The position numbers and the translations under genes were made by a program. A DNA stretch of 64,000 nt, taken from contig CANRPJ010000003.1 of the NCBI GenBank assembly GCA_947632485.1, positions 1 to 64,000 on the forward strand, written 5' to 3'. Below the pieces are notes generated by a model that saw nothing but the letters and a program-made list of their open reading frames with translations, ran no database searches and was not told the origin of the DNA. The stretch is from an uncultured Muribaculaceae bacterium. GTDB taxonomy: Bacteria; Bacteroidota; Bacteroidia; Bacteroidales; Muribaculaceae. Positions 33,868 to 43,182 of the stretch are shown here, in pieces; the first letter of the stretch is position 1; the number at the start of each line of letters is the position of its first letter.

Positions 33868-34092
33868 ATGGATACAAAGGAACGACACATTAAAGAGAAC
33901 GAAAGACGTGAGGATCCCGATACGCTGGCTCAGAGCCTGACCGCAAACGGAAAGAACCGCAAACGTCACGACACGAAGAAGATCAACCGCCTGTGGCTAT
34001 GGCTGGGAGTGCTGATTCTCGTCTTCATCCTCCTTTATTGGCTCTTCAGCGTAGGTATCTTCGCAGATCTGACCAATAGCGTCAACGGCTGA
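33868..34092 (+). CDS. Small single-pass membrane protein
   Basis: From MDTKER the product is 74 residues: a charged, hydrophilic first half (about 1-42) with many Lys/Arg/Glu and one strong hydrophobic helix, LWLWLGVLILVFILLYWLF (about 43-61). The open frame extends upstream into dnaB, but that part lacks coding character. The orientation is probably N-in by the positive-inside rule. I do not recognise a family. The gap to dnaB is 83 nt and the terminator at 34179 closes the unit. Confidence 0.65.
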   Translation: MDTKERHIKENERREDPDTLAQSLTANGKNRKRHDTKKINRLWLWLGVLILVFILLYWLFSVGIFADLTNSVNG

Positions 34093-34178
34093 TAAGTCAG
34101 CCCCAAAGAAACACCCGGCCATTCAAGGTCCTCTAAAAGGGTCTGTAGTCAGAATTATTAAAAAGAGACCGGGAATTG

Positions 34179-34215
34179 AGCTCTCGCTTGCCTCTGGCAC
34201 TCGAGAGCTTTTTTT
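34179..34215 (+). terminator. Rho-independent terminator
   Basis: AGCTCTCG (34179-34186) pairs with CGAGAGCT (34202-34209) around a 15-nt loop, followed by a run of T to 34215. It separates the dnaB region from pruA. Confidence 0.8.
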
Positions 34216-34312
34216 GCGACATTTTGACATAATTTTCGCCCCCGGAATTTTCTTAGGATTATTTAAGAAACTTTTTTGCTTCTGTTTGATATAAATTTCA
34301 GAGGAAAAGGTG

Positions 34313-34320
34313 TAACTTTG
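34313..34320 (+). promoter_or_regulatory. -7 element of the pruA-hypE-hypD operon
   Basis: TAACTTTG at 34313-34320; a TTTG at 34285-34288 lies 24 nt upstream, a slightly long spacing. The leader to the ATG at 34353 is about 30 nt. Confidence 0.5.
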
Positions 34321-34352
34321 TAGGCAAGAAACTCTATTCAAACAGAACCGAC

Positions 34353-35984
34353 ATGAACAACTCTATTTTCAAGTTTCCGAATCCGGGCAACGAGCCTGTG
34401 AAGAGCTATGCACCCGGCACTCCGGAAAAAGCAGAACTCAAGAAAGCGCTTAAGCAACTTTCCGGCGAACAGTGGGATATACCCCTGGTGATCGGCGGCA
34501 AAGAGATCCGCACAGGCAATACGGGCAAAGTAGTGATGCCCCATGACCACAACCATGTGCTCGCCACTTACCACAAGGCTGGTGAGAAAGAGGTGCAGAT
34601 GGCTATCGATGCAGCCATGAAGGCCCGCAAGGAATGGGCTGATCTTCCCTGGGAAGAGAGGGCAATGGTGATGCTGCGTGTAGCTGAGCTGCTTGCAACC
34701 AAATACCGCTATCTGCTCAATGCATCGGTGATGCTTGGCCAGAGCAAGAATCCCTTCCAGGCTGAAATCGACGCTCCCTGCGAGCTGATCGACTTCCTGC
34801 GCTATTCCACCTGGTATGCCCAGCAGATCTATGCTGACCAGCCTTACAGCGAGAAGGGTCTCATCAACCGTATGGAATACCGCGGCCTCGAGGGCTTCGT
34901 ATTCTCTCTGACTCCGTTCAACTTCACTTCGATCGCATCGAACCTGAACATGGGTCCGGCTATGATGGGTAATGTGGCAGTATGGAAACCTTCTACTACC
35001 GCACTCTATTCGAACTATCTGCTGATGAAGGTGTTCAAGGAAGCAGGTCTGCCCGACGGCGTAGTAAACTTCATCCCGGGCAGCGGCCGCACCATCGGTA
35101 AGGTTGTTACCTCGAGCCCCGATTTCGCAGGCTTCCACTTCACCGGTTCAACCGAGACCTTCAACACGCTCTGGCGCCAGATCGGCGAGAACCTTGGCAA
35201 CTACAAGAGCTACCCGAAGATCGTAGGCGAGACTGGCGGAAAGAACTTTATCTTCGTTCACCCCTCGAGCCCCACGAAGGAAGTGGCCGTAGCTATCGTG
35301 CGCGGTGCTTTCGAATATCAGGGTCAGAAGTGCTCCGCAGGTTCGCGCGCTTATATTCCGAAGTCGCTCTGGCCTGAAATCAAGGAGCAGGTTGGCGAGA
35401 TGCTGAAGGAGATCAAGATGGGTGACGTTCAGGACTTCTCGAACTTCATCAACGCCGTGATCGACGAGGCTTCGTTCGACAACATCATGGGCTACATCGA
35501 GCACGCCAAGAACGCTCCCGACGCTGAGATCGTATTCGGCGGCAAGGGCGACAAGAGCGTAGGCTATTTCGTAGAGCCGACCGTGATCCAGACCACCAAC
35601 CCGCACTATAAGTCGATGGTTGAGGAGATCTTCGGCCCCGTGATCACGATCTATGTATACGACGACGACAAATACGAGGAGACTCTGGAGCTTGCCGACT
35701 CCACATCGCCTTACGGCCTGACGGGTTCGATCTTCGCCCGCGACCGCGACGCGATCAACAAGGCTTACGACAAGCTGCGCTTCTCGGCCGGCAACTTCTA
35801 CGTGAACGACAAGCCGACCGGCGCCGTAATCGCCCAGCAGCCCTTCGGAGGCGCCCGCGCTTCCGGCACCAACGATAAGGCAGGCGGCCCGCTCAACCTT
35901 ATCCGCTGGACCAACGCACGTTGCATCAAGGAGACACTCGTACCGCCTACGGATTACAAATATCCGTTCCTGGCCGAAGCATAA
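34353..35984 (+). CDS. pruA: L-glutamate gamma-semialdehyde (P5C) dehydrogenase
   Basis: The enzyme oxidises glutamate semialdehyde, the open form of P5C, to glutamate with NAD. The 543-residue protein resembles the ALDH4 group: TPFNFTSIASNLNMGPAMMGN, VWKPSTTAL, FTGSTETFNTLW, the general base Glu293 in VGETGGKN and the nucleophile Cys327 in GQKCSAGSR. It is a stand-alone dehydrogenase with no PutA-type proline dehydrogenase domain. The activase gene starts 51 nt downstream, followed by the HypD-like gene, so the P5C it uses could come from hydroxyproline. Codon usage looks strongly biased, suggesting high expression. Confidence 0.93.
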   Translation: MNNSIFKFPNPGNEPVKSYAPGTPEKAELKKALKQLSGEQWDIPLVIGGKEIRTGNTGKVVMPHDHNHVLATYHKAGEKEVQMAIDAAMKARKEWADLPWEERAMVMLRVAELLATKYRYLLNASVMLGQSKNPFQAEIDAPCELIDFLRYSTWYAQQIYADQPYSEKGLINRMEYRGLEGFVFSLTPFNFTSIASNLNMGPAMMGNVAVWKPSTTALYSNYLLMKVFKEAGLPDGVVNFIPGSGRTIGKVVTSSPDFAGFHFTGSTETFNTLWRQIGENLGNYKSYPKIVGETGGKNFIFVHPSSPTKEVAVAIVRGAFEYQGQKCSAGSRAYIPKSLWPEIKEQVGEMLKEIKMGDVQDFSNFINAVIDEASFDNIMGYIEHAKNAPDAEIVFGGKGDKSVGYFVEPTVIQTTNPHYKSMVEEIFGPVITIYVYDDDKYEETLELADSTSPYGLTGSIFARDRDAINKAYDKLRFSAGNFYVNDKPTGAVIAQQPFGGARASGTNDKAGGPLNLIRWTNARCIKETLVPPTDYKYPFLAEA

Positions 35985-36035
35985 GGCTTCGACCCGCATA
36001 GGCGATAACAGAGGAAGAGTTTCGCTATCCAAGAT

Positions 36036-36848
36036 ATGGAAGGACTCATCTTCGATATGAAACGCTATGCCATCCACGATGGCCCCGGTATCCGGACGAC
36101 GGTATTCTTAAAAGGGTGCCCTCTCCGGTGCCGCTGGTGCCATAATCCTGAGAGCCAGGCTGGAGGGCAAAGCATGATGCATAGTGTGCAGAAACTGGAC
36201 GGCCACGAGTTTAACGCCGACCACACTGTAGGTGAGCGCATCACTCCCCAGGAGGTGATCCGCCGCGTGATGCGCGACCGGATGTTTTTCGACGACTCCA
36301 ATGGCGGCGTCACCTTCTCCGGCGGCGAACCGCTGCTTCAGGCCGACTTTCTGATAGAATGTCTCCGACTGGCTAAAGAGGCCGGCCTTCACACTACGGT
36401 CGACACCGCAGGCGCCGTAGCTCTCGACCCCGAGAAGCTCGACAAGATCTGCGACCTGACCGACCTATTCCTCTACGACGTAAAGACCGTAGACCCCGAG
36501 CGCTTCTCCACCTGGATCGGAAAAGGATTCGACCATGTGGTGGCCAATCTGAAGCATATAGCAAAGAGAGGCAATCAGGTGCTGGCGCGTATACCGGTGA
36601 TTCCGGGAGTGAACAACGATCCCGAAAGCATCAGCGCCATCTCCCGCTTCCTCGATGAGCTCGGCCTGCGCTACGTAGAGATGCTGCCTTTCCACCGCAC
36701 AGGATCCGACAAATATGAGCGCCTGGGAATGGAATGGGGTATGGGCGATGCGAAGTCGCTCACCAAAAAGGACCTCGTGCCCTTGAAAGAACAGATGGCC
36801 GCCGAACTGCCCGGAGTGGTATTCGCCGACGACCAGAGAAAAGCTTAA
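36036..36848 (+). CDS. Glycyl-radical enzyme activase (HypD partner)
   Basis: The 270-residue radical SAM activase has the cluster motif CPLRCRWC (CxxxCxxC), followed by HNPES, and GGVTFSGGEPLLQ, the SAM-binding GGE region. It should install the glycyl radical on the enzyme encoded 54 nt downstream. Most activases of this class other than PflA carry a ferredoxin-like insert with eight Cys after CHNPE. Here the stretch of about 40 residues after that point has no Cys, so only one 4Fe-4S cluster is predicted. An internal Met8 (MKRYAIHDG) is an alternative start. Named from context; hypE would fit. Confidence 0.88.
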   Translation: MEGLIFDMKRYAIHDGPGIRTTVFLKGCPLRCRWCHNPESQAGGQSMMHSVQKLDGHEFNADHTVGERITPQEVIRRVMRDRMFFDDSNGGVTFSGGEPLLQADFLIECLRLAKEAGLHTTVDTAGAVALDPEKLDKICDLTDLFLYDVKTVDPERFSTWIGKGFDHVVANLKHIAKRGNQVLARIPVIPGVNNDPESISAISRFLDELGLRYVEMLPFHRTGSDKYERLGMEWGMGDAKSLTKKDLVPLKEQMAAELPGVVFADDQRKA

Positions 36849-36902
36849 AAAGCAAACAACCATAATAATAAGGAAAACACAGAACTAACAATTAGGAAAT
36901 CT

Positions 36903-39266
36903 ATGACACCTCGCATTCAGAAGCTGCGTCAGGAGAGCCTTGACGCCGTGAACAGAATCACCGCCGAGCGTGGTAAGCTCGTGACCGATTTCTACAAGTC
37001 GGGAGTAGCTGCCGCAGAACCGGTGCCCGTACAGAGGGCAATGTGCTTCGACTACATTCTTTCGAACAAACATATCTATGTAGGCGAAGGCGAACTGATC
37101 GTAGGCGAGCGCGGACCGGCCCCGAAGGCCACCCCGACCTACCCTGAGATCAACATCCACTCTGAAGAAGACCTCAAGATCCTCAACGACCGCGAGAAAG
37201 TATCGTTCAAGAGCGATGAGGAGACCCGCAAGGTATATCGCGACGAGATCATTCCCTTCTGGGAGGGTCACAGCAACCGCGACCGCCTCTTCGCTTCCCT
37301 TCCGCAGGAATGGCAGGACGCCTATGCCGCTGGTATCTTCACCGAATTCCAGGAGCAGCGTGCCCCCGGCCATACGGCTCTGGGTCTGAAGATGTTCCGC
37401 ACCGGCCTGCTCGATCTCAAGAAAGAAATCGCTGAGAGCATGGCCAACCTCGATATGGTCAACGATCCCGAGGGTCTCGATAAGAAAGACGAGCTCCGCG
37501 CTATGGACATCGTATGCGATGCCATGATCAAATATGCCAACCGTCACGCCGACGAGCTCGACAAGCTGGCTAAGGCTGAGAAAGATCCGAAGCGCAAGGC
37601 TGAGCTCGAGGAGATGGCACGCATCTGCCGTAAGGTGCCCGCCCACGCTCCCGAGACTATCCACGAGGCTCTGCAGCACTACTGGTTTATCCACCTCGGC
37701 GTGGTGACCGAGCTCAACCCCTGGGACTCCTTCAACCCCGGCCGTCTCGATCAGGCTCTCTGGCCTATCTATGAGAAGCAGCTTGCAGAAGGCACAATCG
37801 ACAAAGAGACCGCCCGCGAGCTCCTTAGCGCATTCTGGGTGAAATTCAACAACCACCCCTCACCTCCGAAGGTAGGCGTAACGGCTCAGGAGAGCGGTAC
37901 CTATACCGACTTCTGCCTCATCAATGTGGGCGGCGTGAAGCCCGACGGCAGCGACGGCGTAAACCCGATGACCTATCTCATTCTCGAGGTAATCAAGGAG
38001 ATGCGTCTGCTCCAGCCCAGCTCTATGGCTCAGGTAAGCCGCAAGAACCCCGACAAATACGTGCGCGCGGTGATCGATATCGTAAAGACCGGTTTCGGCC
38101 AGCCTTCGATCTTCAACACCGATGCTATCGTGCAGGAGATGCTCCGCGCAGGCAAGGATATCGTAGATGCCCGCAACGGCGGCTGCTCTGGCTGCGTTGA
38201 GACCGGTGCATTCGGTACCGAGGCTTATATCCTGACCGGCTACTTCAATCTGCCGAAGATTCTCGAACTCACGCTCAACAACGGTTTCGATACCCGCACT
38301 GGCAAGCAGCTCGGCCTCAAGACCGGCGATCCGCGCGACTTCAAGACCTACGACGAGCTCTTCGAGGCTTACCGCAAGCAGGTGCAGCACTTCATGAACA
38401 TCAAGCTCATGGGCAACAACATCATCGAGCGCATCTTCATGAAGAATATGCCTGTGCCCTTCCTCTCGGTTCTGATCGAAGACTGCATCAAGAACGGCAA
38501 GGACTATATGTGCGGCGGCGCACGCTACAACTCCAGCTACGTGCAGGGCGTGGGTCTCGGCTCAATCACCGATATCCTCACTTCGCTCCGCTACCACGTA
38601 TACGATAAGAAGGACATCTCCATGGACACCATGCTCGATGCTCTGGAGAAGAACTTCGAAGGCTACGAGGAGCTGCAGCGTAAACTCGTGTACGAGACGC
38701 CGAAATTCGGTAACGATGACGACTACGCCGATGAGCAGGCTACGGCTGTGTTCGACATGTACTATGACTCCGTCAACGGTCACAAGACCCCGCGCGGCGG
38801 CCAGTATCGCGTCAACATGCTCCCGACCACCTGCCACGTATACTTTGGCTCCGTGACGGGCGCAACCCCCGACGGACGTAAGAGCGGAAAGACGCTCAGC
38901 GAGGGCATCTCGCCGTCGCAGGGTGTTGATACCTGCGGTCCTACGGGCGTAATCAAATCCTGCGCTAAGATCGACCACATCAAGACCGGCGGCACGCTGC
39001 TGAACCAGAAGTTCACTCCGTCGCTGCTCGAGACTGAGCAGGGTCAGCAGGGTGTGCTCCACCTGATCCGTTCTTACTTCAAGATGGACGGCCACCACAT
39101 CCAGTTCAATGTAGTAAACGCTGATACGCTCCGCGATGCCCAGAAGCACCCGGAGAACTACCGCGACCTCATCGTGCGCGTAGCAGGCTACAGCGATTAC
39201 TTCAATGACCTGAGCGTTGACCTCCAGAACGAGATCATCACCCGTACGGAACACGAGAACTTCTGA
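36903..39266 (+). CDS. hypD: Glycyl-radical enzyme, trans-4-hydroxy-L-proline dehydratase (HypD)
   Basis: HypD removes water from trans-4-hydroxyproline to give P5C. The 787-residue length and many segments match C. difficile HypD as I recall it: GELIVGE, EFxEQRAPGHT with His157, PSSxAQxSRK-like, NGGCSGCVETGAFG with thiyl Cys431 and Glu433, PKILELTLNNG, GKDYMCGGARYN, TPKFGNDDDYAD, KSCAKIDHIKTGGTLLNQ, and RVAGYSDYF with the radical Gly762. The numbering is offset by 3 from the C. difficile residues 160, 434, 436 and 765. The pyruvate formate-lyase signature (two adjacent Cys) is absent. The operon with activase and pruA fits. An older database name would be formate acetyltransferase. Confidence 0.88.
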   Translation: MTPRIQKLRQESLDAVNRITAERGKLVTDFYKSGVAAAEPVPVQRAMCFDYILSNKHIYVGEGELIVGERGPAPKATPTYPEINIHSEEDLKILNDREKVSFKSDEETRKVYRDEIIPFWEGHSNRDRLFASLPQEWQDAYAAGIFTEFQEQRAPGHTALGLKMFRTGLLDLKKEIAESMANLDMVNDPEGLDKKDELRAMDIVCDAMIKYANRHADELDKLAKAEKDPKRKAELEEMARICRKVPAHAPETIHEALQHYWFIHLGVVTELNPWDSFNPGRLDQALWPIYEKQLAEGTIDKETARELLSAFWVKFNNHPSPPKVGVTAQESGTYTDFCLINVGGVKPDGSDGVNPMTYLILEVIKEMRLLQPSSMAQVSRKNPDKYVRAVIDIVKTGFGQPSIFNTDAIVQEMLRAGKDIVDARNGGCSGCVETGAFGTEAYILTGYFNLPKILELTLNNGFDTRTGKQLGLKTGDPRDFKTYDELFEAYRKQVQHFMNIKLMGNNIIERIFMKNMPVPFLSVLIEDCIKNGKDYMCGGARYNSSYVQGVGLGSITDILTSLRYHVYDKKDISMDTMLDALEKNFEGYEELQRKLVYETPKFGNDDDYADEQATAVFDMYYDSVNGHKTPRGGQYRVNMLPTTCHVYFGSVTGATPDGRKSGKTLSEGISPSQGVDTCGPTGVIKSCAKIDHIKTGGTLLNQKFTPSLLETEQGQQGVLHLIRSYFKMDGHHIQFNVVNADTLRDAQKHPENYRDLIVRVAGYSDYFNDLSVDLQNEIITRTEHENF

Positions 39267-39290
39267 TCCGCACAAATATCCTCTTAATAC

Positions 39291-39319
39291 CGGAGGCCGT
39301 CCTGATGAGACGGCCTCCG
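39291..39319. terminator. Strong hairpin between convergent genes
   Basis: CGGAGGCCGTC (39291-39301) pairs perfectly with GACGGCCTCCG (39309-39319), loop 7 nt. It is followed by CTGCTTTATATT on the plus strand. It ends hypD and the convergent fucosyltransferase gene. Confidence 0.7.
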
Positions 39320-39324
39320 CTGCT

Positions 39325-40140
39325 TTATATTATAACCCGGAATAAATTGTCAAACCGGTCGAAATCCGAATCGGAAAACTCCTTGGCCGGATCCTTTATC
39401 CAATAGAGCGGCACATCGCGATACATTGAAGCCACCAGCGAGAATGTGCTCGGCGCTCCCGCGAGCCAGTCGCATTTCGAGAGCAGACAAAGATCTTCGG
39501 CGGGATTGCCCTCGGCGAAAACGAAGTTCACATCCGGAAGCTCACGCCTGAAGAAATCACGGTCAAGAGTGGGATCATTACCACATACGAAAACCGTGAC
39601 TCCCCTATCTGCATGGAGCTCAGCGAAACGGCGCACCACGGCAGCATATTGGGCATCGCTATAGAGATAGCGGCCACCCTGCCAGCGCGCATAGTCACCC
39701 CGCCTGATGTGCAGCCCAAGAGCCACATCGCCTGGACGGCACAGGCTTCTCACATTCTCCGCCTGCTTCTCAACCTCAGGCAGAAAGGCGAAAAGATCAA
39801 GAATCTCACGTTTATATTTGAGAAAGAGATCGTAGAACCTCACTTCCCAGCCCTGCACCACCAGATTGCGCTTACGCTCCATCTGAGCCACAAGCTCCAG
39901 CTCCACCACTCCGGGAGTATCGAAGCTCACTACCGGGAGCAGTCCGGCGCCGGCAAGCCCTTTGGCCACCACATAGGTCAGGAAATTATGACCTCTCGTA
40001 TGCGAAATCCGGAACCAGGGATATTTGTAGGCGAAACGCATAGAAAGCGCCTTCCTTCCGTGCTCGCGCGCCCAGGCGTAGACATGGCCGAATTGCAGGA
40101 TATTATTGCATAACCTGCCTTTATCTCTTACGAAAATCAT
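39325..40140 (-). CDS. GT11 alpha-1,2-fucosyltransferase-like protein
   Basis: The 271-residue protein carries HIRRGDY (about residues 148-154), the GDP-fucose motif of GT11/GT37 enzymes, and the later motifs VFVCGNDP, NFVFAEGNPAEDLCLLSKCDWLAGAPSTFSLVAS. The N-terminal GRLCNNILQFGHVYAWA replaces the usual GxLGNQxFQY-type phrase, with Cys-Asn where Gly-Asn is normal. It probably adds fucose to a surface glycan. It is coupled by an ATGA overlap to the upstream GT2. Confidence 0.82.
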   Translation of the reverse strand: MIFVRDKGRLCNNILQFGHVYAWAREHGRKALSMRFAYKYPWFRISHTRGHNFLTYVVAKGLAGAGLLPVVSFDTPGVVELELVAQMERKRNLVVQGWEVRFYDLFLKYKREILDLFAFLPEVEKQAENVRSLCRPGDVALGLHIRRGDYARWQGGRYLYSDAQYAAVVRRFAELHADRGVTVFVCGNDPTLDRDFFRRELPDVNFVFAEGNPAEDLCLLSKCDWLAGAPSTFSLVASMYRDVPLYWIKDPAKEFSDSDFDRFDNLFRVII

Positions 40141-40913
40141 GAATTGAGTTTATCCTGTTCCTGGCTCTCGTAGGCCTTGGCAAGCATCAGAAATTTATAG
40201 TAGCCCTTCTGCACCGCCTCCATGAAGCCTACGCGGCCATAGCGGAAACCTCCCTGAAGCACGTACTTACGGAAGAAATGAAAGGCCGGCACAGCCATCA
40301 TGTTCCAAAGCGTGGGGTGGAGCCGTCCTTTCCTCTTCTCCAGCTCATTCTCTGTATAATGGTTAAGCTTATCTACAGTTGAGAATACAGTAGAGTCGAG
40401 ATGCACGAATGCCAGTTCCTGCCGCTTTGCAGGGATTCGCTCCACAGAGCCATCTACCTTAGGGAAAGTATGTACGTAAGGAGGCCACACCGTGCCCTCA
40501 CGCTTGAAAAAGCGTAACTGGGAATCAGGATAGGAGGAGCGCAGGAAAATTCCTCCCATATAGTTCTTGCGGGGGATATAAAGACCGGCTGGGCAATCGG
40601 GCTCGGCAATCCTTGAATAAAGATAGCTGCGTAGCTCCGGGGTAACAATCTCATCGGCATCAACCACCAACACCCACGGATTGGCGGCCGACTGAATAGC
40701 AAAAGTTCGCGCAGGCTCAGCGCTGTGATGATTCTCCTTCGGAAAGGTCACGATCCGCGCGCCGTGGCGGGAAGCAATTTCGCGAGTGGAATCAGTGCTC
40801 TCCATATCGCAAACCACTATCTCATCAAAACCTTTAAGCGCCGAGAGCACCCGATCAAGGTGCTTCTCGGCGTTGTAGGTATTGATCACTGCGGATATGC
40901 GCTTATCGGCCAT
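40137..40913 (-). CDS. WaaE/KdtX-like GT2 glycosyltransferase
   Basis: From MADKRI the product is 258 residues. It has SAVINTYNAEKHLDRVL, CDMESTDSTREIA, VVDADEIVTPEL and a C-terminal pair HFFRKYVLQGGFRYGRVGF, all typical of the family that adds a core sugar to lipopolysaccharide. An open frame begins 27 codons earlier, inside the GH2 gene; the chosen start leaves a 22-nt gap after that gene. It is the middle gene of GH2-GT2-GT11. Confidence 0.85.
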   Translation of the reverse strand: MADKRISAVINTYNAEKHLDRVLSALKGFDEIVVCDMESTDSTREIASRHGARIVTFPKENHHSAEPARTFAIQSAANPWVLVVDADEIVTPELRSYLYSRIAEPDCPAGLYIPRKNYMGGIFLRSSYPDSQLRFFKREGTVWPPYVHTFPKVDGSVERIPAKRQELAFVHLDSTVFSTVDKLNHYTENELEKRKGRLHPTLWNMMAVPAFHFFRKYVLQGGFRYGRVGFMEAVQKGYYKFLMLAKAYESQEQDKLNS

Positions 40914-40935
40914 AGCTGCTGTGAGGGGTTTTGTT

Positions 40936-42747
40936 TCACTTGCCGTCGAGCGAATGCACGAGCTTCTGATTCGCCTCGCGCACTGCTTTCTCATCTACCT
41001 TCAGCACCTTGCGGTCGTAGGTCATCAGTCCGTTAACCTCGCCTTCCACATCAGTGGTCTGCGTATATACGCCGGCCGAAAATCCGTTAGGCACGAGGTC
41101 GAGAAGCTTACCGGCATAGTCCACGTAGGTGTCAGTAACCTCCTTGGGGGAGTTAAACTTCACGTAACCCCAGTTCTTGTCGGGCTCCCAGATATGATCT
41201 TTCACCACCAGGCCGATACCTCCGTATTCACCCAGCACCGTCGGGCGCATGGCATCATAGAGATAAAGCTTAGGCTCAGGATAATGGTGAAGGTCGAGCA
41301 TATCGCCAACCGGGTAATGATTGCCGCCGCTTGCAGGATTAACAAGACGCGAAGGATCATACTTCTTAGTCCAAGCCACGATTTCGGGAGTCTTAAACTG
41401 TCCCCATGCCTCATTGAATGGCACCCATACCACCACCGAGGGATTATTGTAGCAGAAATCCATGATTTCCTTCCATTCCTTGCGATACTGAGCCTCCGAC
41501 TCCTCGGAGCGTGCAAATTCAGTGCCGTCGAAATATTTATCGTCGATCCACTGCGGTCCGCGGTCGCCGCTCGGCATATCCTGCCATACGAGAATACCCA
41601 GGCTGTCGCAATGAGTGTACCAGCGGGCTGGTTCAACCTTCACGTGCTTACGGATCATATTGAAGCCCAGATCCTTGGTCTTCTTGATATCGTAGGCGAG
41701 AGCCTCGTCGGTAGGAGCCGTATAGAGCCCGTCGGGCCACCAGCCCTGATCCAGAGGCCCCATCTGGAAAAGCGGCTTATTATTGAGCTCCATGCGCACT
41801 ACCCCGTTCTCATCGCGACCGGTAGAGATCTTGCGCATAGCCGTATAGCTGTCAACCTGGTCTACCACCTTACCATCTTTCACCAGACGCACCTTGAGGC
41901 CGTAAAGATTCGGGCTGTCAGGGCTCCAGAGCTTCATGTCGGCTGGCATTGCCACATTCGCCTTCTCGCCATTTACAGCTGCGCCGGAGGCCACCTTCCT
42001 GGCTCCATCGTATACGTCGACCTCGAGCTTCATGTGGCCGTCTCCTGCCAGATCCGCACCTACCGAAAGCTCACCGGCATCAATATCGGGGGTGATATTG
42101 AGCGAAGCTATATGATTTTCGCCTACAGGTTCAAGCCATACGGTCTGCCAGATACCGGTGACCGGCGTGTACCAGATTCCGGTAGGCTTCTGCGTCTGCT
42201 TTCCTCTTGGCTGATAGCCCCGGTTTGTAGGATCCCACACCCGGAGCGTCACCGTATTATCGCCTTTCTGGAGAGCATCGGTCACATCGAAGCTGAACGG
42301 CGTATAGCCGCCACTATGGCTTCCGACCTTGACACCGTTTACCCACACGTCGGCCAGCCAGTCTACTGCTCCGAAATGCAGCAGCGTGCGCCGGCCGTCC
42401 CATGTCTTAGGCACGGTGAAGGAGCGCTCATACCAAAGTTCCTCATTGTCTGAAACTCTTTTACCTACCCCTGAGAGAGCCGATTCCACTGCGTAGGGCA
42501 CCAGAATTTTGCCCTGCCAGCTTTCCGGAGCCTTCTGGCCCTTCGGCAGAATGGCATAATTCCATTCTCCATTGAGGTTTTTCCACTCTCCCCGCTTCAT
42601 TGCCGGTCTGGGATACTCCGGCAGCGGCGCCTTGGGATCTACTTTCTCTGCCCACGGCGTAAGAATCTTGCCGCCGACAGGTTTCCATTGTGCATTAGCG
42701 CCCGCTACAGTCGCCGCGAGCGTGAGGATTAAAGCAATACGTTTCAT
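40936..42747 (-). CDS. Glycoside hydrolase family 2 protein, exported
   Basis: The 603-residue protein has a signal peptide ending AGANAQ. The order is a sugar-binding jelly roll (about 55-205, GAVDWLADVWVNGVKVG), an immunoglobulin-like domain (about 210-300) and a TIM barrel with acid/base Glu in PFNEAWGQF and nucleophile Glu in VLGEYGG. The layout fits beta-galactosidase, beta-glucuronidase or beta-mannosidase, and the substrate cannot be decided. At 603 residues it is a short GH2 without the extra C-terminal domains of LacZ. It is the first gene of a unit with two glycosyltransferases. Confidence 0.9.
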   Translation of the reverse strand: MKRIALILTLAATVAGANAQWKPVGGKILTPWAEKVDPKAPLPEYPRPAMKRGEWKNLNGEWNYAILPKGQKAPESWQGKILVPYAVESALSGVGKRVSDNEELWYERSFTVPKTWDGRRTLLHFGAVDWLADVWVNGVKVGSHSGGYTPFSFDVTDALQKGDNTVTLRVWDPTNRGYQPRGKQTQKPTGIWYTPVTGIWQTVWLEPVGENHIASLNITPDIDAGELSVGADLAGDGHMKLEVDVYDGARKVASGAAVNGEKANVAMPADMKLWSPDSPNLYGLKVRLVKDGKVVDQVDSYTAMRKISTGRDENGVVRMELNNKPLFQMGPLDQGWWPDGLYTAPTDEALAYDIKKTKDLGFNMIRKHVKVEPARWYTHCDSLGILVWQDMPSGDRGPQWIDDKYFDGTEFARSEESEAQYRKEWKEIMDFCYNNPSVVVWVPFNEAWGQFKTPEIVAWTKKYDPSRLVNPASGGNHYPVGDMLDLHHYPEPKLYLYDAMRPTVLGEYGGIGLVVKDHIWEPDKNWGYVKFNSPKEVTDTYVDYAGKLLDLVPNGFSAGVYTQTTDVEGEVNGLMTYDRKVLKVDEKAVREANQKLVHSLDGK

Positions 42748-42751
42748 TCAG

Positions 42752-42783
42752 CAAAGTTACCGAAAAAAGGCTTTTATTCCAAA
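42752..42783 (-). promoter_or_regulatory. Promoter of the GH2-GT2-GT11 unit
   Basis: On the minus strand TTTG (42780-42783), 20 nt, TAACTTTG (42752-42759). The ATG at 42747 is 4 nt away, so the mRNA should be leaderless. Confidence 0.75.
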
Positions 42784-42812
42784 TTGAGCTTCACCATATA
42801 CATAAGAACGCA

Positions 42813-42840
42813 CAGGACCTCTCCCTGGGGAGCTGTCCTG
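42813..42840 (-). terminator. Hairpin after rpmH
   Basis: CAGGAC (42813-42818) pairs with GTCCTG (42835-42840), with an inner CTCC/GGAG stem and a 4-nt loop. It lies 24 nt past the rpmH stop. The T-tract on the minus strand is weak. Confidence 0.55.
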
Positions 42841-42864
42841 CGCTTATTCTGTCGGCCAGACCGA

Positions 42865-43023
42865 TCAGCCCTTCGAGGCGATGTGATCGGATACGGAAAG
42901 GCTCTTACGGCCTTTGGCGCGGCGGGCATTAATCACCCGGCGACCCGTCTTGGTGGCCATCCGCTCGCGGAAACCGTGCTTATTCACGCGACGGCGGTTG
43001 GAGGGCTGAAACGTTCTTTTCAT
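42865..43023 (-). CDS. rpmH: 50S ribosomal protein L34
   Basis: Reading the minus strand from the ATG at 43023 gives a 52-residue basic protein beginning [18 protein letters not shown], continuing [22 protein letters not shown] and ending SKG. This is the L34 signature ([12 protein letters not shown], HGFRxRMxTxxGRxVLxxRRxKGR). The length is typical. It has its own promoter and a downstream hairpin, and is divergent from efp across about 160 nt. No dnaA or rnpA is adjacent, unlike the arrangement in many other phyla. Confidence 0.97.
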
Positions 43024-43060
43024 TTTATTGCAGTTTTATTTTGTTCAGTTTTTCGGCCTG

Positions 43061-43092
43061 CAAAGTTACGCATTCCTTTTCATTCCCGCAAA
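43061..43092 (-). promoter_or_regulatory. rpmH promoter
   Basis: On the minus strand TTTG (43089-43092), 20 nt, TAACTTTG (43061-43068). The leader to the ATG at 43023 is about 35 nt. Confidence 0.8.
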
Positions 43093-43141
43093 TCATTTTT
43101 CAAAACGACACGACCATTATAGCTATTTCGCGGAAAATAGC

Positions 43142-43149
43142 TACCTTTG
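43142..43149 (+). promoter_or_regulatory. -7 element of efp
   Basis: TACCTTTG, 33 nt before the efp ATG at 43183. An in-frame non-ATG start at 43147 would fall inside this element, which argues for 43183. No exact -33 TTTG was seen. Confidence 0.55.
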
Positions 43150-43182
43150 CAGCACTACAAAGAATTAGAACAATTACTAAAT

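What the first reader, a model, noticed from the sequence alone, without database searches (positions are those of the whole stretch)
34353..39266. Oxidative hydroxyproline pathway: pruA, activase and hypD in one operon
Seen: a P5C dehydrogenase, a radical SAM activase and a glycyl-radical enzyme, spaced 51 and 54 nt apart on one strand behind one promoter-like element. The enzyme has Cys431, Glu433, His157 and Gly762 in contexts that match HypD, all offset by 3 from the C. difficile residues. Known: HypD turns trans-4-hydroxyproline into P5C, and clostridia reduce P5C to proline with ProC as an electron sink. Inference: here PruA would oxidise P5C to glutamate instead, so the bacterium would gain NADH, nitrogen and carbon from collagen-derived hydroxyproline. 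No proline dehydrogenase or proC is in the window.
Basis: partly seen in the sequence, partly recalled or inferred. Interest (0 to 1): 0.72.

Follow-up and report, generated by a model that had tools for sequence, protein, structure and literature searches.

The report
Operon oxidising hydroxyproline to glutamate
A Bacteroidales-type genome carries a three-gene operon that looks built to turn hydroxyproline, the signature amino acid of collagen, into glutamate, and its enzyme-activating protein lacks an iron-sulfur domain that most such proteins are said to have.

Summary
HypD passes its equivalog cut-off (1252 vs 1100 bits) and keeps all ten residues checked; PruA passes too (804 vs 614).

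The oxidative reading gains support. Of the six nearest pruA relatives (75-85%), four have a proline dehydrogenase gene, another P5C maker, just downstream; here activase-hypD stands there. A close hypD relative has a PutA-like gene between activase and hypD. Corrections: the genome has PutA and ProC outside the window, and the operon is no family trait (HypD over cut-off in 1 of 297 family genomes; the operon lies in a 9 kb stretch that is 0.6-0.9 kb in four congeners). Type-1 P5C dehydrogenase lies near none of 88 other hypD loci with enough flank.

Of 78 classifiable loci of the order sample, all 65 upstream activases lack it and all 13 downstream ones have it; outside the order the rule fails (Cetobacterium: upstream, with domain). 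Activity is untested.

The parts
34179..34215 (+). hairpin (8-bp stem, 34179-34186 with 34202-34209) followed by T6: likely terminator of the preceding transcript
   Evidence: read from the sequence; not reported by the scan, whose loop limit is 8
34285..34320 (+). promoter-like element: TTTG, 24 nt, TAACTTTG
   Evidence: read; spacer one base beyond the range searched
34353..35984 (+). pruA: type-1 L-glutamate gamma-semialdehyde (P5C) dehydrogenase, 543 aa
   Evidence: TIGR01236 803.7 bits, cut-off 613.6; P5CDHs are the best PDB hits; nearest relatives 84-85% identical in family f105
36036..36848 (+). radical-SAM glycyl-radical-enzyme activase, 270 aa, without the ferredoxin (two [4Fe-4S]) domain
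   Evidence: TIGR02494 269.9 bits, cut-off 174.35; CxxxCxxC present, 54 aa and no Cys between it and the GGVTFSGGEP region; groups with activases of the same HypD clade
36903..39266 (+). [quoted passage not shown]
   Evidence: NF043068 1252.2 bits, cut-off 1100; PDB 6vxc best (1032 bits, next 535); ten catalytic/binding residues conserved
39291..39319 (+). terminator-like stem (11 pairs) after hypD
   Evidence: weak: the scan as a whole is at chance level
34093..43182 (.). accessory stretch between a small ORF after dnaB and the elongation factor P gene; holds the operon plus two glycosyltransferase genes and a GH2 gene
   Evidence: the same flanking genes are 604-880 nt apart in four congeners; domains

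Best explanation
This is a dedicated oxidative hydroxyproline operon. The activase uses SAM and a reduced [4Fe-4S] cluster to put a glycyl radical on Gly762 of HypD; HypD dehydrates trans-4-hydroxy-L-proline to P5C; PruA oxidises P5C (as glutamate semialdehyde) to glutamate, presumably with NAD+; glutamate can then feed glutamate dehydrogenase and nitrogen metabolism. Shown here: gene identities by curated models, conserved residues, gene order, the different partner gene in pruA's relatives, and that no other genome of the family sample has HypD over cut-off. Inferred: co-transcription, catalytic activity, direction of P5C flux, cofactor, and that the activase works without auxiliary clusters. 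The likely history, also inferred, is that a pruA of the PRODH-linked type and an activase-hypD pair of another lineage were brought together after lateral gain.
For: HypD and P5CDH equivalog cut-offs passed. Ten HypD residues kept in the window and in all 123 relatives aligned. HypD tree: window inside the HypDs, apart from the other GREs given. PruA's nearest relatives have PRODH next door in 5 of 11 loci, 4 of the nearest 6, 3 of 4 in the nearest family; the own genome has one Pro_dh match only, that in the PutA-like protein. In L045, a close HypD relative, the order is activase, PutA-like, HypD; L041 (97% identical HypD, so one case with L045) has PutA-like then HypD. HypD-positive genomes carry type-1 P5CDH in 108 of 129, the rest in 118 of 264. 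The genome has a glutamate/leucine-type dehydrogenase match (277 bits). Contrast: a Cetobacterium plasmid has activase-hypD-proC, the reductive arrangement.
Against: ProC and a PutA-like protein with both domains exist in the genome, so P5C need not pass through PruA. Type-1 P5CDH is within 5 kb of hypD in none of the 88 other loci with enough flank, so this arrangement stands alone in the sample and could be chance. 6 of the 11 nearest pruA loci show no PRODH beside pruA. No transporter or peptidase gene lies in the operon, and the only PutP-like match is far below its cut-off (103.5 vs 515.5). The co-occurrence is not corrected for relatedness or genome size. GC content of the genes gives no sign of foreign origin. 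L045's PutA-like protein is below the NCBIfam PutA cut-off (378.5 vs 747).
Confidence: 0.75

Rival explanations
1. HypD's P5C is reduced to proline by the genome's ProC (as in clostridia), and PruA is there for P5C from other sources.
For: proC is present on contig 14. Papers describe the reductive route in Clostridia, with P5CR beside hypD in some of them (PMC9044972 passages; PMC7077986 introduction). A Cetobacterium plasmid shows activase-hypD-proC.
Against: proC lies on another contig; pruA, not proC, shares the operon. A ProC-like gene lies within 5 kb of hypD in 1 of 88 other loci, on the other strand and at 81 bits (the query was the own ProC at E 1e-15, so divergent ProC could be missed).
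Confidence: 0.12
2. pruA serves proline or arginine breakdown and only happens to lie beside hypD.
For: Relatives of this pruA sit beside PRODH in 5 of 11 loci, and in genus g220 of the same family beside an arginine deiminase family gene in 3 of 9 loci.
Against: Neither gene lies beside it here, and the genome's PutA-like protein already has an aldehyde dehydrogenase domain. The 51-nt gap and shared strand favour one transcript.
Confidence: 0.08
3. The operon is poorly functional because its activase has lost the ferredoxin domain.
For: Passages in PMC10239695 say that 4-Hpad-AE without auxiliary clusters activates its enzyme but the radical does not last.
Against: The same passages report lasting radical with IbsAE lacking its auxiliary clusters. 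All 65 upstream activases in the classified order sample lack the domain while the HypDs aligned keep every residue checked, so the form is maintained. The radical-SAM motif and the GGE region are intact.
Confidence: 0.05

Closest known systems
HypD of Clostridioides difficile (PDB 6vxc/6vxe; [quoted passage not shown]
   Same: Best PDB hit; same curated equivalog family; ten residues identical
   Different: Reductive context in C. difficile (hypD with proC; PMC9044972 passages); here pruA instead. The C. difficile activase was not examined
Parabacteroides distasonis hypD-activase pair (NZ_OY725750)
   Same: Bacteroidales HypD with adjacent activase
   Different: HypD 53.6% identical; activase downstream, 301 aa, 8 Cys in the ferredoxin stretch; no P5CDH annotated within 6 kb
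Activase, PutA-like, hypD of a rumen MAG named Bacteroidaceae (L045, JAFWPH010000002)
   Same: HypD 79% identical and a ferredoxin-less activase of the same clade; a P5C-oxidising gene in the cluster
   Different: A fused Pro_dh-aldehyde dehydrogenase protein rather than stand-alone type-1 P5CDH
pruA-PRODH pairs of families f105 and f113 (L241, L243, L244, L245)
   Same: pruA 76-85% identical
   Different: Partner is proline dehydrogenase, not activase-hypD
Pyruvate formate-lyase activating enzyme (PDB 3c8f)
   Same: Radical-SAM activase without ferredoxin domain; best solved relative
   Different: Below the PFLA cut-off (199.5 vs 231.75); PFL-type rows form a separate clade with 100/100 support; linker 54 aa here, 33-35 aa in the PFL-type activases of family genomes

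Membership tests
[quoted passage not shown]
   1252.2 against 1100 bits
[quoted passage not shown]
   all ten present
[quoted passage not shown]
   quick tree of 55 rows; the C. difficile enzyme is not a row, and two of the six outgroup rows have very long branches
[quoted passage not shown]
   -
Type-1 P5C dehydrogenase | Score over equivalog cut-off TIGR01236 | tested here: met
   803.7 against 613.6
Type-1 P5C dehydrogenase | Aldehyde-dehydrogenase Cys and Glu motifs (recalled, from no call: GQxC and GExGGKN) | tested here: met
   GQKCSAG and GETGGKN visible
HypD activase NF043069 | Score over equivalog cut-off | tested here: not met
   265.8 against 425; an activase of the order sample WITH the ferredoxin domain also misses it (L186, 338.6)
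HypD activase NF043069 | Two-cluster ferredoxin-like domain | tested here: not met
   no Cys in the 54-aa stretch
Glycyl-radical-enzyme activating protein (TIGR02494) | Score over subfamily cut-off; CxxxCxxC | tested here: met
   269.9 against 174.35, in two stretches; motif
Pyruvate formate-lyase activase (TIGR02493) | Score over cut-off; branches with PFL-type activases | tested here: not met
   199.5 against 231.75; outside the PFL-type clade
Clostridial reductive hypD-proC cluster | proC next to hypD | tested here: not met
   the genome's only proC match is on contig 14

The most novel reading that the evidence does not exclude
Bacteroidales hold a distinct, widespread HypD system: activase gene first, and an activase whose ferredoxin domain is replaced by a shorter segment (54 residues here and in most relatives, 0-2 Cys), so that the glycyl radical is installed and kept without auxiliary clusters. 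In this genome that system has taken the place of proline dehydrogenase beside a pruA, giving a hard-wired oxidative hydroxyproline-to-glutamate operon.
Probability: 0.6. Interest if true: 0.62.

Novelty: new variant of a known kind. Interest (0 to 1): 0.47.

Why it matters
HypD is described as one of the most abundant glycyl radical enzymes of the healthy human gut (PMC7077986, introduction), yet the physiology that I saw worked out is the clostridial reductive one. An operon joining HypD to P5C dehydrogenase gives a testable case of hydroxyproline serving as carbon, nitrogen and reducing power. That paper's introduction already says in general terms that Hyp can be catabolised for carbon and nitrogen, so the idea is not new; the operon would be a hard-wired example. 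The ferredoxin-less activases give a natural comparison for the open question of what the auxiliary clusters do (function 'still largely unknown', PMC10239695 passage; most GRE activases are said to have such clusters, PMC11528403 passage).

Tried and rejected
Rejected: that the activase missed the NF043069 cut-off only because the ferredoxin domain is gone.

Rejected: that the activase is a PFL activase paired by chance; it groups with the activases of the same HypD clade (100/100) and not with the PFL-type rows. Whether the domain was lost, and how often, is open: the base of the activase tree is unresolved and the ferredoxin-less rows are not one clade on it, while the ferredoxin-less HypDs form one group at SH-aLRT 98.

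Rejected as general: 'activase upstream means no ferredoxin domain'. It holds for all 78 classified loci of the order sample, but a Cetobacterium plasmid (Fusobacteriota) has the activase upstream with 8 Cys in that stretch.

Rejected: that the operon is a family trait (HypD over cut-off in 1 of 297 family genomes; short site in congeners). Loss in all the others is not excluded.

Led nowhere: structure prediction of the activase (12 attempts, machine busy each time), so the shape of the 54-aa segment is unknown and no fold search was made. The two papers most likely to discuss HypD neighbourhoods (PMC5705181, PMC6219649) are not held; I therefore make no claim that the operon or the ferredoxin-less activases are absent from print. 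Paper searches made. Papers seen: PMC7077986 (passages, and the introduction); PMC11574389, PMC11528403, PMC10239695, PMC9044972, PMC6620236 (passages only); all others only as search listings.
Full report
OBSERVATION. The three genes are exactly where stated, on one strand, with gaps of 51 and 54 nt. No terminator-like site lies between them on + and one follows hypD, though that scan found no more sites than shuffles give. Upstream stands TAACTTTG at 34313-34320. The fuller pattern TTTG-N17-23-TAnnTTTG is enriched in this window (9 against 0.58 expected) but is not matched here, since its TTTG is 24 nt away.

IDENTITY. HypD: NF043068 1252.2 bits (cut-off 1100); in the PDB the C. difficile HypD scores 1032 bits and the next GRE 535; all ten residues checked are kept, as they are in 123 of 123 relatives aligned (those with a complete activase beside them; nearly all from records named Bacteroidota or from the order sample). 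PruA: TIGR01236 803.7 (cut-off 613.6). Activase: TIGR02494 269.9 (cut-off 174.35), below NF043069 (265.8 against 425). Part of that shortfall is general, as a ferredoxin-type activase of the order sample scores 338.6. The genomes of the genome search bear codes; that the order is Bacteroidales is inferred from one sample genome whose hypD contig (G106, 383982 bases) gave the same sequence as a contig of that length named Odoribacter. The family name is not verified.

THE ACTIVASE. Between CxxxCxxC and the GGVTFSGGEP region it has 54 residues and no Cys. In other ferredoxin-less activases the stretch is 54 in most, 40-55 in range, with 0-2 Cys; in the seven ferredoxin-type HypD activases that could be measured it is 90-91 with 7-9 Cys; in PFL-type activases of family genomes 33-35. 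Of the order sample (129 of 393 genomes with HypD over cut-off) I looked at 88 loci, 82 after removal of repeats: 65 have the activase upstream and ferredoxin-less, 13 have it downstream with the domain, none is mixed, 3 have no activase in the stretch and 1 is cut off. 30 of the 88 were the best-scoring and 58 were picked for room on the contig, so the sample is not random. Of the 80 named loci found by similarity to the window HypD, 70 are ferredoxin-less, 7 have no activase in the stretch and 3 are cut. The two HypD groups are separate on the tree (ferredoxin group 100, other group 98 SH-aLRT). Outside the order the link fails: in Cetobacterium the activase is upstream and has 8 Cys in that stretch. 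The activase alignment (38 rows) has an invariant Gly66 in the segment. Its structure could not be predicted.

NEIGHBOURHOODS ELSEWHERE. Among 134 unique hypD loci (80 named, 58 of the order sample, 4 repeats removed; the window not counted), 88 have at least 4.5 kb upstream and 3 kb downstream. Within 5 kb of hypD: type-1 P5CDH in 0 of 88; PutA-like in 1 (L045); a ProC-like gene in 1 (opposite strand, 81 bits); M24 peptidases in 17; proline racemase family in 6 (family names). L041, whose flank is too short for that count, has a PutA-like gene directly upstream of HypD; its HypD is 97% identical to that of L045, so the two are one case. Named contrasts: Parabacteroides distasonis hypD-activase, Cetobacterium activase-hypD-proC.

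WHERE PRUA COMES FROM. In the order sample the closest pruA genes are in family f105 (85, 84, 84, 78%), then f113 (76, 75%). Of the 11 nearest loci, 5 have a proline dehydrogenase gene next to pruA: 4 of the nearest 6, 3 of 4 in f105. Two HypDs of f105 are 89-90% identical to that of P. distasonis, so f105 may be Tannerellaceae (inference); the three f105 HypDs examined are of the other, ferredoxin-type group. The window HypD and activase instead belong with L037, L039, L040 and L042-L045 (75-80% HypD identity). So the operon seems to join parts of two histories, with activase-hypD standing downstream of pruA where PRODH stands in relatives. Within the own family, whole-length pruA is otherwise found in genus g220 at 63-66%, beside an arginine deiminase family gene in 3 of 9 loci.

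GAIN OF THE OPERON. HypD over cut-off occurs in 1 of 297 family genomes, the window's own. Of the 75 other genomes of the genus sample with a dnaB match I fetched 18 dnaB stretches. Four (L213, L220, L221, L227) keep dnaB, small ORF and efp in the window's order with 604-880 nt between the last two; in the window that distance is about 9.1 kb and holds the operon, two glycosyltransferase genes and a GH2 gene. Three more (L216, L222, L223) have small ORF and efp 1.9-2.4 kb apart with the efp end turned round; the other 11 lack one of the two genes in the stretch. None of the 18 stretches matched PruA, the family-11-like glycosyltransferase or the GH2 protein; the second glycosyltransferase gave only 25-28% matches in three. 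No tRNA lies in the window. GC over the genes is ordinary (0.55-0.58; 0.495 in 34000-34999, which takes in the intergenic stretch).

MECHANISM AND RIVALS. Hyp to P5C by HypD, P5C to glutamate by PruA is the best reading (0.75). HypD-positive genomes have type-1 P5CDH in 108 of 129, others in 118 of 264 (Fisher p 5e-14, not corrected for relatedness or genome size). Against it: ProC and a PutA-like protein are in the genome, there is no transporter or peptidase gene in the operon, and the arrangement was seen nowhere else in the sample. The literature already says that Hyp may be catabolised for carbon and nitrogen (PMC7077986, introduction); that text and PMC9044972 (passages) describe P5CR beside hypD in some Clostridia.

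VERDICT. A real HypD operon; a new arrangement of known enzymes with a variant activase. New variant of a known kind, interest 0.47.

Noticed in passing
L037:3596-8364 and L042:3597-8361: In two MAGs with HypD 80% identical to the window's, a dnaB gene ends 19 nt upstream of activase-hypD; in the window the operon also lies downstream of dnaB, although their dnaB scores only 528-529 bits against the window's (most congeners 690-806). The two MAG HypDs are 97% identical, so this may be one case. Shared site or chance is open.
   Followed up: partly
window 39325-42747: The accessory stretch also carries, on the other strand, a family-11-like glycosyltransferase (26.2 bits, cut-off 23.9), a family-2 glycosyltransferase and a GH2 glycoside hydrolase.
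   Followed up: no
L070, L062, L075, L104 and others, just downstream of hypD: M24 peptidase genes (one scanned is of the aminopeptidase P type) recur beside hypD, in 17 of 88 loci, sometimes with a dipeptidyl-peptidase-like gene and a proline racemase family gene, as would suit peptides rich in proline and hydroxyproline.
   Followed up: partly
L183, L185-L190, L192-L194, L196-L198: A second HypD type in the order sample: hypD first, activase downstream with ferredoxin domain.
   Followed up: yes
L200, L201, L203: In genus g220 of the window's family, pruA is followed by an arginine deiminase family gene in 3 of 9 loci, another possible source of P5C.
   Followed up: no
L262 (NZ_OY725750): A record labelled plasmid 5 of P. 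distasonis carries hypD-activase near xylose and RND efflux genes; whether it is a true plasmid was not checked.
   Followed up: no
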